A stretch of DNA of 42,242 nucleotides from assembly GCA_040882465.1 (NCBI GenBank), contig JBBEBG010000005.1, forward strand, positions 1 to 42,242. Direction: 5' to 3'. Below the pieces are notes generated by a model, which was given only the letters and a program-made list of their open reading frames with translations, searched no databases and had not been told where the DNA came from. Below are positions 37,427-42,242 of the stretch, in pieces; within the stretch, counting starts at the first letter, position 1, and each line of letters starts with the position of its first letter. The position numbers and the translations under genes were made by a program. This DNA is from Gemmatimonadota bacterium (GTDB taxonomy: Bacteria > Gemmatimonadota > Gemmatimonadetes > Longimicrobiales > Gaopeijiaceae).

Positions 37427-38236
37427 TTGTCAATTGCATCCCATTGGGGATGGGTTTCCGTCATCTCGACAACGGCGGGTTCCTCCATGACGCTCGCCTT
37501 CTGCGCGGATCCACGGTTTCGCGCCCACGTTGAGGTACTCACGCCTCCTCTCGCCGTGACGGACGATTGGGATACTTTCGAGCACACTGCGCACCGGGCC
37601 GCCACCCTCATCGTGGTGACCGAATCACTTCGCGATTGGTCCCATTTGGACTCCATGCGGCGGCTCAGGGCGAGACTGCCCGGGGTCCCCTGGATACTCC
37701 TTACAGGCCGGAGCGAGAGGAATCTTCTCGAACTTCGGCGGTTCGAGGTCGAGGAAGTTGTCTTTACGACCGAACTCGAACGTCTGGAGGGTGCGATCCG
37801 CGGCGTCCGTGTCCGGAAAGTACGCTCGACTCTTGCGAAGTTCGTGAGCGAGCACGAGGGATTCACGCGATACAAGAAGAGACTTCTTCGAGCCCTTTTC
37901 GAGGCCAATGAGCCGCCCAGGAGCTGCTCCGAGTGGGGTAAACTCGCGCACGTTGCGCCGGATACGGTCAAGTATCACTTCAGACATGTGAAGGACCGGG
38001 GCGGTCCACCGGCTTCATTCCTCCTAAACGCCAACCTGGTTCTCGCCGCTCTCGAGTCGGCGCCGGCCGCCCGCTCTTGGAGCGAACTTTCCGCTGTCGT
38101 GAATGTCGATTCTCGGCGGCTTCATCGGGCCGGGACCATGCTCACGCAGAACGCAGGGCAATCTCCCGCGGCACCGTTGCCCTCCATCCAACAGGTGGCG
38201 AAGGGCCTCGGGCAGTCGCTCAGCAGCGCGCCGTAA
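37427..38236 (+). CDS. putative transcriptional regulator with receiver-like N-terminus and two helix-turn-helix segments
   Basis: About 269 residues. I do not recognise a named family. Residues 10-125 alternate strands and helices like a receiver or pseudo-receiver (VSVISTTAG, TLIVVTESLRDWSHLD, VPWILLTGRSERN, EVVFTTELERLEGAI), but the phospho-acceptor pattern is not clear. The C-terminal half has two helix-turn-helix candidates: SEWGKLAHVAPDTVKYHFRHV (about 168-189) and SWSELSAVVNVDSRRLHRAG (about 217-237). The start is uncertain: a TTG at 37427 has a G-rich ribosome site and keeps the first strand; ATG at 37487 would lose it. It lies upstream of the DsbA/peptide genes and may control them. 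Confidence 0.6.
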   Translation: MSIASHWGWVSVISTTAGSSMTLAFCADPRFRAHVEVLTPPLAVTDDWDTFEHTAHRAATLIVVTESLRDWSHLDSMRRLRARLPGVPWILLTGRSERNLLELRRFEVEEVVFTTELERLEGAIRGVRVRKVRSTLAKFVSEHEGFTRYKKRLLRALFEANEPPRSCSEWGKLAHVAPDTVKYHFRHVKDRGGPPASFLLNANLVLAALESAPAARSWSELSAVVNVDSRRLHRAGTMLTQNAGQSPAAPLPSIQQVAKGLGQSLSSAP

Positions 38237-38334
38237 ACGGCTCGTTCGGTTGCGGGTCGAATTCACTACACGATTCGGTCGGAACGGCTACACGACCTGG
38301 TTTGGAGAATCTGGGCGGAAGTTCAAGATTGGTA

Positions 38335-38355
38335 GCGGACCTCCATGAGGTCCGC
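38335..38355 (+). terminator. perfect 9-bp hairpin after the regulator gene
   Basis: GCGGACCTC (38335-38343) pairs with GAGGTCCGC (38347-38355) around a CAT loop. It lies about 100 bases after the regulator stop and 130 before the first DsbA-like gene, so it probably separates two transcripts. No T-run follows. Confidence 0.55.
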
Positions 38356-38483
38356 CCGAGAGTCTTCGGCGCGCACCAGCTCAGCCGCCTGCCTTCGCCA
38401 AGCTTCACCGGCGATGAAAGCAGGCCCGCATTCCGAGACCTGTTAGGGCCCAGTATCAGCTCCTGCTGCGGAGGGAGTTGGCC

Positions 38484-39011
38484 ATGGAGAAAGCGTCGTC
38501 GACGGTATGTGCAATGACAGTAATCACCATCTGCGCCGTCCTTCTCGTGGGAGTTCTTCTGAGGCGGGAGTTCTTCGGGGACGCGGAGGTGGGCATCGCG
38601 CCAGGCGCCCCCGAGTACGTCGAGGGTTGGGAGGATATGCTTGGCGAAAAGCTCACGGTCGCCTCATCAGCGGGCACGGCGCAAGTCTTCGCGTTTTTGG
38701 GTTTCCAGTGCCCGTATTGCCCCGACTTCCACGAGAATACCTTGTGGGCCCTCGAGGAAGAGTTTGGTGATGCATTGAAGGTCACCTTTCTCCACCTGCC
38801 GTTGGACATTCATCCCTTCGCGGACGCTGCGGCGATTGCAGCAGGGTGCACCGCCGAACAGGGGCAGTTCAGACAGTTCGCGGACGCCTCGTTCGCGATG
38901 CAGGATTCGATAGGCGTTCAGGACTGGATCGCACTTGCGAATGATGCAGGAATTCCCGACGTCACAATTCACACAGAATGCATGCATCTTGTGCCGGATG
39001 CGCTAACGTAG
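38484..39011 (+). CDS. membrane-anchored DsbA-like thioredoxin-fold protein, C-terminally truncated
   Basis: A 175-residue protein with an N-terminal membrane anchor (about 9-28) and a thioredoxin-like core. The active site is CPYC (76-79) in FLGFQCPYCPDFHENT, followed by the DsbA-type helical region (LHLPLDIHPFADAAAIAAGC). The ATG has GGAGGGAG six bases upstream. It stops soon after AGIPDVTIHTECM. The sibling at 39526 continues there for some 85 residues, including the cis-Pro loop GTPTLVING and the last strands of the fold. No such sequence follows here in any frame. The protein thus lacks a key half of the active-site surface and may be non-functional or specialised. Confidence 0.72.
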   Translation: MEKASSTVCAMTVITICAVLLVGVLLRREFFGDAEVGIAPGAPEYVEGWEDMLGEKLTVASSAGTAQVFAFLGFQCPYCPDFHENTLWALEEEFGDALKVTFLHLPLDIHPFADAAAIAAGCTAEQGQFRQFADASFAMQDSIGVQDWIALANDAGIPDVTIHTECMHLVPDALT

Positions 39012-39087
39012 TGTAGGAGCGAGCTCGGTAGGACTTGAAAGGGTGGACAGGGGTGCCGCGTCGCCCGCAACGGGCATCCCGCTCTTG

Positions 39088-39093
39088 TTGACA
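39088..39093 (+). promoter_or_regulatory. candidate -35 element of the peptide gene
   Basis: A perfect TTGACA lies 58 bases before the peptide ATG. The matching -10 is poor (TCATTC with an 18-base spacer), so the promoter assignment is weak. Its position between the first DsbA-like gene and the peptide allows separate transcription of the peptide. Confidence 0.3.
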
Positions 39094-39151
39094 GGTATAT
39101 CAAAGGCCTGCTCATTCTCATGCACCGTACTCTCGCGGAGGCAATCTCACA

Positions 39152-39412
39152 ATGACAAAGCACACTCGCCTTAAGATCATCGCGTTTGCCGCCCTGGCGC
39201 TGGCATCCGGGGCGTACTCGAACCTCTTGGGCTCACCCCCCCGGTTAGAGGGCGAATTCGATCTATGCTGGGTTGCGTGCCCCGATAATGTGACGAAACA
39301 GGCTGCGTGCGAAGAACAATCCGGAGCTTGGAACGGTTCTCCTTGCTGGCATTCATGCTCGGGACCCGAAGGATGGCGGCCGATCGGCATTACCTGTATC
39401 TACGTAGGATGA
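39152..39412 (+). CDS. small exported cysteine-rich peptide with two CWxxC motifs
   Basis: An 86-residue protein of no family I know. Residues 1-23 look like a Sec signal peptide (basic MTKHTRLK, then IIAFAALALASGAYS), without a lipobox. The mature part of about 60 residues has six Cys at 39, 43, 53, 65, 69 and 82. They form two CX3C units, CWVAC and CWHSC, each with Trp after the first Cys, plus two single Cys, enough for three disulfides. The ATG has GGAGG ten bases upstream and overlaps the TGA of an 11-codon upstream frame. It lies between two membrane-anchored DsbA-like genes that could oxidise it. Toxin, bacteriocin, signal or structural peptide are all possible. Confidence 0.62.
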   Translation: MTKHTRLKIIAFAALALASGAYSNLLGSPPRLEGEFDLCWVACPDNVTKQAACEEQSGAWNGSPCWHSCSGPEGWRPIGITCIYVG

Positions 39413-39525
39413 CGACTCACCGCCCTTAGATGGCCGAGGCGCCCTGTCCACCCACACTTTGTTTGAGCGGTCGTGACGCTGTGCATACGCGGCAGTGACA
39501 CTCACCTTCATTGAGGTAACAGACG

Positions 39526-40248
39526 ATGATCGACCGCCTCGCTTCCATTGCGCTTATTGTCGCAGCCCTAGTTTTTTCAGTCACGCTGATACACGGCGAA
39601 TTCTTTTCTGCAGCGACCCGCACTGACCTGTATCAGCCCAAATACATTGAGGAATGGTCATCCGCGCTTGGCGCCTCTGTGAATTCTGCCAGTCCGGACG
39701 CGCCTGTACAAATTATGGCCTTTGTCGACTATCAATGCCCCGCTTGCGCTGTCGCCGATTCTGTGATCCGCCAACTCAGACGGGCATATCCCACAGAGGT
39801 CGCAGTTCATTACTTACATTATCCCTTGCCGGCTCACCCGCAAGCGCGAGTGGCCGCCCTTGCCGTCGAGTGCGCCATGGAATTCCAGCGCTTTGATGAG
39901 ATGGCTCACATTCTTTACAGCGGCCAGGAATGGTTCGGCGTAAAGCGTTGGGATGAGTATGCCGATGACGCCGGAATCGCAGACATAGCACAATTTAATG
40001 TTTGCATGGCGGAGGCAGGCCACATTGCTCGTATTGAGGCAGGTCTTCGTTGGGGAGAGACGTTTGCAGTTTTAGGTACTCCTACGCTGGTCATAAACGG
40101 GTGGATGTTTTTCGGAGGGCTTACCTATGAGCAGCTCGATACTCTGGTTTCAGCGGTACGCTCGGAAGAATTGCGCTCAGATCTGTCGCCCGAAGACGTG
40201 TCGGCCATTGTTGGCCACTCGTTTCGCGGTCCCACTTCCGCCATGTAG
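39526..40248 (+). CDS. membrane-anchored DsbA-like thiol oxidoreductase
   Basis: A 240-residue protein with an N-terminal anchor (SIALIVAALVFSVTLIHG, about 7-24) and a complete DsbA-type thioredoxin fold facing the periplasm or outside. The active site is CPAC (71-74) in FVDYQCPACAVADSV, a helical insertion spans about 105-170, and the cis-Pro loop is GTPTLVINGW (P186). It is a homologue of the truncated protein at 38484: both share the anchor, the EYVEGWED/KYIEEWSS linker and the catalytic region. The start has GAGGTAA upstream. Base composition is much lower in G+C than in the left part of the window. It probably catalyses disulfide formation in exported proteins, plausibly the adjacent Cys-rich peptide. 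Confidence 0.85.
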   Translation: MIDRLASIALIVAALVFSVTLIHGEFFSAATRTDLYQPKYIEEWSSALGASVNSASPDAPVQIMAFVDYQCPACAVADSVIRQLRRAYPTEVAVHYLHYPLPAHPQARVAALAVECAMEFQRFDEMAHILYSGQEWFGVKRWDEYADDAGIADIAQFNVCMAEAGHIARIEAGLRWGETFAVLGTPTLVINGWMFFGGLTYEQLDTLVSAVRSEELRSDLSPEDVSAIVGHSFRGPTSAM

Positions 40249-40297
40249 GGATGACTTTGGGCTTCCGAGCACCACTTTCCTAAGCAATTCTACGCAC

Positions 40298-41452
40298 TTG
40301 CTGACGCGTCTTGCTTTCGTTGGGCTCACTTGCTCGGGGTCACTCGGCTATTTCTTCGCTTCCGTCCATGCTCAAGATCGCTCCAGCTCAACGTGGGCAC
40401 TCGATATTGATTGGCGTATCGGGGGACGCTCTGACGCCGCTTATGAGGTGTTTGGTGGATTCCCGTTGAATCTGACCATCGGACCGCACGGCGAAGTCCT
40501 AGTGGCTGATCCTCAGCTGGGCCATATTCATATGTTTGATTCCTCCGGGCGCTTTGTGCGCGCTATTGGCTCCCGAGGCGAGGGACCGGGTGAGTTTGAC
40601 GTTCCGCTCGCCATGGGCTGGGACGCCAATAGCCACCTGTGGGTGTCCGATGCGCGAGGCTATTACCATGTTTTTGATTCCACAGGTGTACCGGTCGAAA
40701 GCCACTCCCACGGCTTTGTCACTCCAGCCCGAATCACAGGCCAGGGCGCATTTGACGCCGAGGGCAACTTCTTGGATGAAACTGAACTCCGTCCTCAGGG
40801 GTCCTCACGGATAACCGTCGCTCTCATCAGGGTAGCACCAGACGGTAACGTGATAGATACGCTCCCCCCCATGGTCGGTCCTCGGTTCGATCTGCGCGAC
40901 CGACCGCTAATGGCCTTTCCGGGCGCTCCGATTAGGGGCTTTGGACGTAACGCACCCGAATCTGTCCTGGCGCTCGCGCGCTATGTACCTCAATTGATCT
41001 TTACTGTGGCTCCGGATGGCACACTTTGGCTGGCGTACTCGAATCGCTATCAGCTCATCCAACGCACACTCGTGGGCGACACCATTCAAGTGATTGATGC
41101 TTCACATCGACCCGTACCCCCCTTATCGCCAGCGGATGAGCGCATATTGCGTGAGGGTTTGCTCCTCGTTGACGTCGAACGGGCTGAATTCGCCTATGGG
41201 AGGCAGCTCCTTCGCTTCATACACGTCCTAGCCGACGGTCATGTGATGATTGGATTGGAGGACGATCCAGGAAGAGGCGTCTCGACGATCGACATTCTGA
41301 CGTCGCACGGAGACTATGAGGGTTCCCTTCTGCTGCCCGTACCCCTTGATGCGCAATCTCAAATTGCATCTCGTGGTGATACCATTGTGTTTGTTACGCG
41401 CGACGCCCTCGAAGTCGCGTCAGTGGTTCACGCGTCGATTCGAAAGCCTTGA
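40298..41452 (+). CDS. secreted six-bladed beta-propeller protein (NHL/6-bladed type)
   Basis: About 384 residues. The TTG at 40298 opens a signal peptide (LTRLAFVGLTCSGSLGYFF, cleavage likely at VHA-QD); no clear ribosome site is visible. In-frame codons reach back into the upstream gene, but their translation there is not signal-like. The mature protein has propeller-blade repeats: NLTIGPHGEVLVADPQLGHI, MFDSSGRFVRAIGSRGEGPG and LWVSDARGYYHVFDSTG. GEGPGEF is typical of 6-bladed propellers common in Gemmatimonadota and Bacteroidota. These proteins bind ligands or partners outside the cell; the target is unknown. It follows the DsbA-like gene by 49 bases. Confidence 0.75.
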   Translation: MLTRLAFVGLTCSGSLGYFFASVHAQDRSSSTWALDIDWRIGGRSDAAYEVFGGFPLNLTIGPHGEVLVADPQLGHIHMFDSSGRFVRAIGSRGEGPGEFDVPLAMGWDANSHLWVSDARGYYHVFDSTGVPVESHSHGFVTPARITGQGAFDAEGNFLDETELRPQGSSRITVALIRVAPDGNVIDTLPPMVGPRFDLRDRPLMAFPGAPIRGFGRNAPESVLALARYVPQLIFTVAPDGTLWLAYSNRYQLIQRTLVGDTIQVIDASHRPVPPLSPADERILREGLLLVDVERAEFAYGRQLLRFIHVLADGHVMIGLEDDPGRGVSTIDILTSHGDYEGSLLLPVPLDAQSQIASRGDTIVFVTRDALEVASVVHASIRKP

Positions 41453-41454
41453 TC

Positions 41455-42242
41455 ATGCGCACGAGTCGCGTGGTGTCCTTCTTCAGTGTTTTGGTTAGTC
41501 TTGCGGCTTCCTTGTTCGCCACCAGATCGGCCACCACCGCACAGGAACCACAACTGGTGATCACTCCGGTTTTGGAGTTGGCTTCCTCCGAAACGGTCTT
41601 TGCTTACGCCCGTGTTTCTCCAGACGGCACGAAGGCGGTGTTTACATTGCAAGACCGCGAGCAAGCGTCGATGGCCCTCCATGTGGTGGATTTGTCAAGT
41701 GAAAGGCGTCTGTTTGTGGAGCCGGGTATCGATGGCTATTGGTCTCCGGAAGGCGATAGGGTGATTTACCGAAGCGGAATGCCCGGAGCAGGTGTCAGCA
41801 TTCTTCATATGAACACCGGCTTCGTTAGTCGCCGCATTGGACCAGAGTCACTTGGTGACTACCCGAGTTGGGGCTTACTTGACGGACGCGACGTCATCTT
41901 GACGATTGACGGAGAGTACTATTTTCGCCGGGGCGATATCGCTGAGGCCGATGCGTTGCCGATGGAGGCTTGTCCCGATATTGGAGTGGGCGATCGGCCA
42001 TTGCTTTCTAAAGACGGTACGCGGGTGTCTGTTTTTGTTAACGGCTCCGTGGTCGTTCGCAATTTGATGGGATGCGACGAAGTGTTTTTTACAGGCGAGC
42101 TGGGCGCCAAGGCCGACTTTTCTTTCGACGGTAGATACATCGCTTTTCATTCACCACGATTGGATGGATTCGGATACGAGATCAAAATCGTCGACCTCGA
42201 GGCGCGCACCGTGCGAACACTTAGCGACTTGGAAGGTTCTAG
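41455..42242 (+). CDS. secreted PD40/TolB-like beta-propeller protein, truncated by the window edge
   Basis: An open frame of at least 262 codons starts two bases after the previous stop and runs off the right edge. It opens MRTSRVVSFFSVLVSLAASL with a signal peptide cleaved near TTA-QEP. The rest shows PD40/WD40-like units: FAYARVSPDGTKAVFTLQD, GYWSPEGDRVIYRSG, PSWGLLDGRDVIL, SFDGRYIAFHS. These match TolB-type propellers. The C-terminal part is missing, so a fused catalytic domain (as in dipeptidyl peptidase-like proteins) cannot be excluded. Its close spacing suggests translation coupled to the upstream propeller gene. Confidence 0.72.
   Translation, partial: MRTSRVVSFFSVLVSLAASLFATRSATTAQEPQLVITPVLELASSETVFAYARVSPDGTKAVFTLQDREQASMALHVVDLSSERRLFVEPGIDGYWSPEGDRVIYRSGMPGAGVSILHMNTGFVSRRIGPESLGDYPSWGLLDGRDVILTIDGEYYFRRGDIAEADALPMEACPDIGVGDRPLLSKDGTRVSVFVNGSVVVRNLMGCDEVFFTGELGAKADFSFDGRYIAFHSPRLDGFGYEIKIVDLEARTVRTLSDLEGS

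What the first reader, a model, noticed from the sequence alone, without database searches (positions are those of the whole stretch)
37427..42242. Candidate undescribed system: exported CWxxC peptide with paired DsbA-like proteins and propellers
In order, on one strand: double-HTH regulator, truncated membrane DsbA-like protein (CPYC), six-Cys exported peptide, full membrane DsbA-like protein (CPAC), secreted 6-bladed propeller, secreted PD40 protein. A disulfide-rich exported peptide between two thiol oxidoreductases suggests dedicated folding. Gene order, motifs and lower G+C are seen in the sequence; the functional link is inference.
Basis: partly seen in the sequence, partly recalled or inferred. 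Interest (0 to 1): 0.75.

Follow-up and report, generated by a model that had tools for sequence, protein, structure and literature searches.

The report
Exported disulfide peptide, dedicated oxidase, propeller
Bacteria of the phylum Gemmatimonadota carry many copies of an apparently undescribed gene set that exports a small cysteine-rich peptide and encodes beside it a membrane-anchored enzyme of the kind that ties disulfide bonds, and often a propeller-shaped exported protein that may be the peptide's partner.

Summary
The 86-residue peptide is a singleton, but the arrangement is not. Taking loci only by similarity to the CPAC DsbA-like protein, 48 of 60 in the order have a small exported cysteine-rich ORF within 2.6 kb on the same strand; 1 of 60 has one on the other strand. 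A 6-bladed-propeller gene is near 42 of 60. Twenty other DsbA-like genes of the same order have neither (0/20, 0/20). In other families of the phylum the figures are 11/20 and 8/20. The peptides fall into about 40 sequence clusters; 69 of 76 have an even mature Cys count. Their Cys class tracks the DsbA tree (15 changes against 33 shuffled). Relatives of the regulator sit at several loci. 'Paired' is not general: the first DsbA-like gene lacks the cis-Pro half and looks decayed. The last gene is cut by the contig end. Most likely a peptide-folding cassette: Sec-exported peptide, oxidised by its own anchored DsbA (recharged by DsbB or VKOR), then working with the propeller. Closest known arrangement: Bacteroidota NVEALA peptides beside propeller lipoproteins, without the DsbA. 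Client relation and biological role are inferred.

The parts
37487..38236 (+). regulator: receiver-like N-terminal part plus two HTH-like segments
   Evidence: Relatives at module loci L101, L116 and L331, and weaker at L114 and L077; in L116, L331, L114 and L077 the gene lies upstream of the peptide gene on the same strand. Not found in the 20 control loci.
38484..39011 (+). truncated anchored DsbA-like protein (CPYC), probably a decayed copy
   Evidence: Profile match 186 bits but only to position 169 of 246; the cis-Pro half is missing. A short stretch reading ATGIPLLLTG lies in another frame near 39067 but the profile does not detect it.
39152..39412 (+). 86-aa exported peptide, six Cys (spacing 3-9-11-3-12)
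   Evidence: Signal-like N-terminus and Shine-Dalgarno seen in sequence; no Pfam or NCBIfam match; own sequence is a singleton, with weak resemblance to the 8-Cys framework of peptides at other module loci.
39526..40248 (+). membrane-anchored DsbA-like thiol oxidoreductase, CPAC, conserved GTP cis-Pro
   Evidence: PF13462 2.6e-19; profile matches DsbA and BdbD chains of the PDB, best 2.9e-31; conserved anchor and CPxC across 35 relatives.
40298..41452 (+). exported 6-bladed beta-propeller, DUF5128/NHL type
   Evidence: DUF5128 1.6e-5, NHL propeller chains 1e-21; AlphaFold model gives propeller-like strands only at both ends, mean pLDDT 48. TTG start and type I signal peptide are judged by eye.
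41455..42242 (+). TolB/PD40-like secreted propeller, cut by the contig end
   Evidence: NCBIfam TIGR02800 4.7e-7; no relative in the 40 neighbourhoods searched, so not shown to belong to the module.

Best explanation
This is one copy of a gene cassette widespread in Gemmatimonadota that makes a small exported disulfide-rich peptide together with its own folding enzyme and, often, a propeller-shaped exported partner. The peptide is exported through Sec in reduced form. The co-encoded DsbA-like protein, held in the membrane by its N-terminal anchor, oxidises it to two to five disulfides through its CPxC site, and is itself recharged by the genome's DsbB or VKOR. The folded peptide then most likely works in the periplasm or at the cell surface, bound to the DUF5128/NHL-type propeller. 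Shown: the genes, their recurrence, the even Cys counts, co-segregation of peptide class with the DsbA lineage, mostly purifying selection on related peptide pairs, and a DsbB gene in this genome. Inferred: that the DsbA acts on the peptide (about 0.6), that peptide and propeller bind each other (about 0.35), and any biological role.
For: Loci picked only by DsbA similarity: peptide near 48/60, propeller near 42/60; control DsbA-like genes 0/20 and 0/20, Fisher 6e-11 and 9e-9. Peptide ORFs are 0.18 per kb near the DsbA on the same strand against 0.006 per kb elsewhere in the same loci. Repeated in other families of the phylum: 11/20 and 8/20. Of 81 loci, 44 have all three genes within about 5 kb, and the peptide lies upstream of the DsbA in 56 of 61. 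Even mature Cys count in 69/76 (binomial 3e-14). Peptide Cys class needs 15 changes on the DsbA tree against 33 when shuffled, 0 of 200 as low. In 9 of 13 related peptide pairs dN is below dS in the mature part; one is about equal, one reversed, two have saturated dS. Searching from the peptide side, five of six newly read loci have a propeller or DsbA beside the peptide. G000 and 6 of 18 relatives have DsbB, 7 others have VKOR, none both.
Against: No expression or biochemical data. The window's own peptide has no clear homologue: best hit in 121 family genomes 3e-4, best score to the other peptides weak, and its profile resemblance to the 8-Cys class is reached by 1% of shuffles and by peptides of other classes. 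The DsbA is missing next to several peptide-propeller pairs (L328, L331) and the propeller is missing at 17 peptide-DsbA loci, so no pair is obligatory. Outside the order the opposite-strand background is higher, 5 of 20. Co-segregation could reflect linked inheritance without function. Peptide and propeller models are low confidence.
Confidence: 0.55

Rival explanations
1. The peptides are secreted antimicrobial or signalling peptides (bacteriocin-like), folded by the DsbA, with the propeller as immunity protein or receptor on the producer.
For: Diverse cysteine-rich cores over short signal-like leaders, tandem peptide copies, several cassettes per genome, and low G+C suggesting transfer. Known bacteriocins use their own thiol oxidoreductase; sublancin with BdbB is an example (general knowledge; papers listed, not read).
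Against: Related pairs mostly show purifying rather than diversifying selection. No dedicated peptide exporter was recognised among the genes recurring in three or more of 40 neighbourhoods, though not all were classified; no bacteriocin family matched over cut-off in the ten peptides scanned.
Confidence: 0.2
2. The peptide is the small disulfide-rich subunit of a propeller-based periplasmic enzyme, like methylamine dehydrogenase (small subunit, MauD-like oxidoreductase, propeller subunit).
For: Same parts list: propeller, small disulfide-rich protein, thioredoxin-fold maturation protein (general knowledge of the Mau system). One peptide gene per propeller in many loci.
Against: No conserved pair of Trp for a tryptophylquinone: some peptides, such as L098_3222, have none. 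Peptides are about 52 residues mature; the propeller is of DUF5128/NHL type, not the 7-bladed heavy subunit. No MauE-like partner was recognised among recurring genes.
Confidence: 0.1
3. The DsbA-like protein is a general oxidoreductase and the peptides are unrelated small exported proteins that happen to share its neighbourhood.
For: The fold is common; most genomes of the order have further DsbA-like genes. Some DsbA loci have no detected peptide (11 of 81 have neither peptide nor propeller).
Against: 0/20 control DsbA-like genes against 48/60; over 30-fold strand-specific enrichment; co-segregation of peptide class with DsbA lineage.
Confidence: 0.08
4. The 86-residue frame in this window is not a gene, or the window's cassette is a decaying remnant.
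For: Singleton sequence; the neighbouring first DsbA-like gene is truncated.
Against: Signal-like leader, Shine-Dalgarno, six Cys and the usual place upstream of an intact anchored DsbA and propeller; related peptides elsewhere are under selection as proteins.
Confidence: 0.07

Closest known systems
NVEALA peptides (PF14055) with TolB_like/DUF5128/DUF4221 propeller lipoproteins, Bacteroidota
   Same: Small exported peptides, mostly with several Cys, beside a 6-bladed-propeller-type lipoprotein, several pairs in tandem; checked in genome G659, loci L287 and L289.
   Different: Different peptide family (no NVEALA match in G000); no DsbA-like gene in the fetched NVEALA stretches. No paper on NVEALA function in the library held.
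Bacteriocin clusters with their own thiol oxidoreductase (sublancin with BdbA/BdbB)
   Same: Works alike: a disulfide peptide with a co-encoded thiol oxidoreductase.
   Different: Gram-positive, dedicated exporter and immunity protein, no propeller; no sequence relation tested. From general knowledge; papers listed were not read.
MauD/MauE with methylamine dehydrogenase
   Same: Thioredoxin-fold maturation protein, disulfide-rich small subunit and propeller encoded together (general knowledge).
   Different: Propeller type, peptide size, no conserved Trp pair, no MauE-like gene recognised.
DsbA/BdbD-type oxidases
   Same: The CPAC protein's fold and CPxC plus cis-Pro site; best profile matches in the PDB are DsbA and BdbD chains.
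   Different: Those serve many clients (general knowledge); this lineage is tied to cysteine-rich peptide loci.

Membership tests
NVEALA peptide system | peptide matches PF14055 | tested here: not met
   No match in G000; control rings in Bacteroides.
NVEALA peptide system | 6-bladed propeller gene beside the peptide | tested here: met
   DUF5128-type propeller follows the DsbA in the window; 42/60 loci in the order.
DsbA-like oxidases (Thioredoxin_4/DSBA) | thioredoxin fold family match with CPxC and cis-Pro | tested here: met
   39526-40248 meets it; 38484-39011 lacks the cis-Pro half.
DsbA-like oxidases (Thioredoxin_4/DSBA) | oxidase activity on exported thiols | not testable with these tools
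   Needs biochemistry.
DUF5128/NHL 6-bladed propeller | family match over cut-off | tested here: met
   PF17170 24.7 bits, cut-off 22.9.
DUF5128/NHL 6-bladed propeller | six blades in the structure | tested here: inconclusive
   AlphaFold model mean pLDDT 48, middle unmodelled.
Bacteriocin clusters | dedicated exporter and immunity gene | tested here: inconclusive
   None recognised among genes recurring in three or more of 40 neighbourhoods; not every gene was classified.
Methylamine dehydrogenase maturation | conserved Trp pair in the small subunit | tested here: not met
   Listed peptides include ones with no Trp.

The most novel reading that the evidence does not exclude
A phylum-wide, many-family repertoire of exported disulfide-rich mini-proteins in Gemmatimonadota, each with its own anchored folding enzyme and often a matched propeller and regulator, forming an undescribed secreted peptide-partner system that shares its core with NVEALA-propeller pairs of Bacteroidota.
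Probability: 0.4. Interest if true: 0.82.

Novelty: new variant of a known kind. Interest (0 to 1): 0.66.

Why it matters
Gemmatimonadota are common in soil but rarely cultured, and dozens of families of structured exported peptides with a co-encoded folding enzyme appear to have gone undescribed: none of the ten peptides scanned matches a known family over cut-off. If the client relation holds, each cassette is a ready-made pair for producing disulfide-rich peptides, and the comparison with Bacteroidota gives a first handle on what the orphan NVEALA peptides and their propellers do.

Tried and rejected
Peptide search with the single 86-residue query: no convincing homologue. Pfam and NCBIfam on ten peptides: nothing over cut-off. 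AlphaFold on the peptide alone and on the propeller with four rows: low confidence, so not searched against folds. Placing the window peptide in the 8-Cys class by profile: suggestive, not specific; by eye, its middle stretch CEEQSGAWNGSPC resembles those at L107 and L276, whose DsbAs lie in the same starred group of 16 on the tree. Reading a frameshifted C-terminus of the first DsbA-like gene: not detected by the profile. Paper searches for NVEALA, DUF5128, BF3164 and the parts together gave nothing on such a module.

Full report
Observation. Searches confirm six ORFs on the + strand from 37487 to the end. The window is the whole contig G000:C5, so the TolB/PD40-like gene is cut. Pfam and NCBIfam identify the CPAC protein as Thioredoxin_4/DSBA, the propeller as DUF5128 and the last gene as TolB-like; the peptide has no match. 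G+C falls from about 67% to 54-62% from the regulator on, and third-position G+C from 0.81-0.84 in two upstream genes to 0.55-0.58 in the last three.

Recurrence. DsbA-like relatives occur in 152 of 154 genomes of the order. I fetched 60 loci by DsbA score alone and 20 lower-scoring DsbA-like genes of the same order as control. A small ATG ORF with a signal-like leader and at least four later Cys lies within 2.6 kb on the same strand in 48/60, on the other strand in 1/60, and in 0/20 controls; a DUF5128-type propeller in 42/60 against 0/20 (Fisher). The density is 0.18 per kb near the DsbA against 0.006 elsewhere in the same loci. Twenty further loci from other families of the class give 11 and 8. 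Strong matches to the DsbA profile occur in 95 of 394 phylum genomes, up to six in one genome. Of 81 loci, 44 hold all three genes, 17 peptide and DsbA, 9 DsbA and propeller, 11 DsbA alone. The peptide detector is a home-made rule, so single cases can be wrong (L068_6875 and L106_1498 look spurious); the controls were run with the same rule.

Peptides. 76 distinct peptides have a median mature length of 52 and 13% Cys; 69 have an even Cys count by a rough cleavage rule, and several odd ones contain a Cys in the leader or look spurious (binomial; related peptides are not independent, so the p-value overstates). They form 42 single-linkage clusters, among them a CC-CC-C-C class, a 4-Cys class, a 10-Cys class and a loose 8-Cys framework. 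For 13 related pairs, mature-part dN and dS were computed: dN is below dS in nine, about equal in one (L104/L111), above in one (L066_11766/L067_8118, 0.60 against 0.43), and dS is saturated in two, where the raw proportion of nonsynonymous change is still the lower. So the peptides are real coding genes, mostly under purifying selection. The window peptide is a singleton; its spacing 3-9-11-3-12 could be the 8-Cys framework without the first and fifth Cys, but the profile test is only suggestive.

Linkage. On a tree of 81 DsbA domains the peptide Cys class needs 15 changes against 33.3 on average when shuffled, with 0 of 200 as low; near copies contribute to this. Relatives of the window regulator lie at L101, L116 and L331, and weaker at L114 and L077. 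Searching from the peptide side with two class alignments, six loci not read before were fetched: L332 has peptide, propeller and DsbA; L333 peptide and DsbA; L328, L330 and L331 peptide and propeller (L330 runs into a contig end); L329 neither detected. Module DsbA genes are lower in G+C than their surroundings in 45 of 56 loci, control 7 of 14, which would fit movement between genomes.

Oxidation chain. DsbB is present in G000 and 6 relatives, VKOR in 7 others, none with both, 5 of 19 with neither detected. The first DsbA-like gene of the window matches the profile only to position 169 of 246 and a second DsbA next to the peptide is rare elsewhere, so the pair is best read as one working and one decayed copy.

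Taxonomy. Contig G071:C51 has the length and peptide of WGEM01000051.1 and G019:C120 those of JAJEBR010000101.1, both named Gemmatimonadetes. Both genomes are in the window's family, hence the phylum; this is inference from shared codes. A Gemmatimonadaceae locus, L190, has all three genes; none of the 74 loci of other phyla in that scan has the propeller, and one Chloroflexi locus (L155) has a plausible peptide.

Comparison. In a Bacteroidota genome, NVEALA peptides lie beside propeller lipoproteins of DUF5128, TolB_like or DUF4221 type without a DsbA-like gene in the stretches read. The two share the peptide-propeller layout; membership is not met because the peptide family differs. No paper on such a module was found in the held library, which does not cover most subscription journals.

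What is shown and what is not. Shown: a recurrent, strand-specific, lineage-linked cassette. Not shown: expression, disulfides, client relation, peptide-propeller binding, role.

Noticed in passing
L073, L079, L085, L087, L092 around the DsbA: In genus g48 the 4-Cys peptides sit with a PDZ-domain gene and a large outer-membrane barrel with a CarboxypepD_reg domain instead of the propeller.
   Followed up: partly
L119 and L272: Very similar peptides and DsbAs occur in genomes of different families (f1 and f7), suggesting transfer.
   Followed up: partly
G000 and 18 relatives: DsbB and VKOR never occur together in the 19 genomes searched: seven with each, five with neither detected.
   Followed up: no
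L155:6589-6861: A Chloroflexi DsbA-like gene has a signal-bearing 6-Cys peptide ORF beside it.
   Followed up: no
L098, L099, L090, L096: MacB/FtsX-type permease genes lie near several cassettes.
   Followed up: no
L287: Bacteroidota NVEALA peptides are arranged as tandem peptide-propeller pairs with different propeller families.
   Followed up: partly
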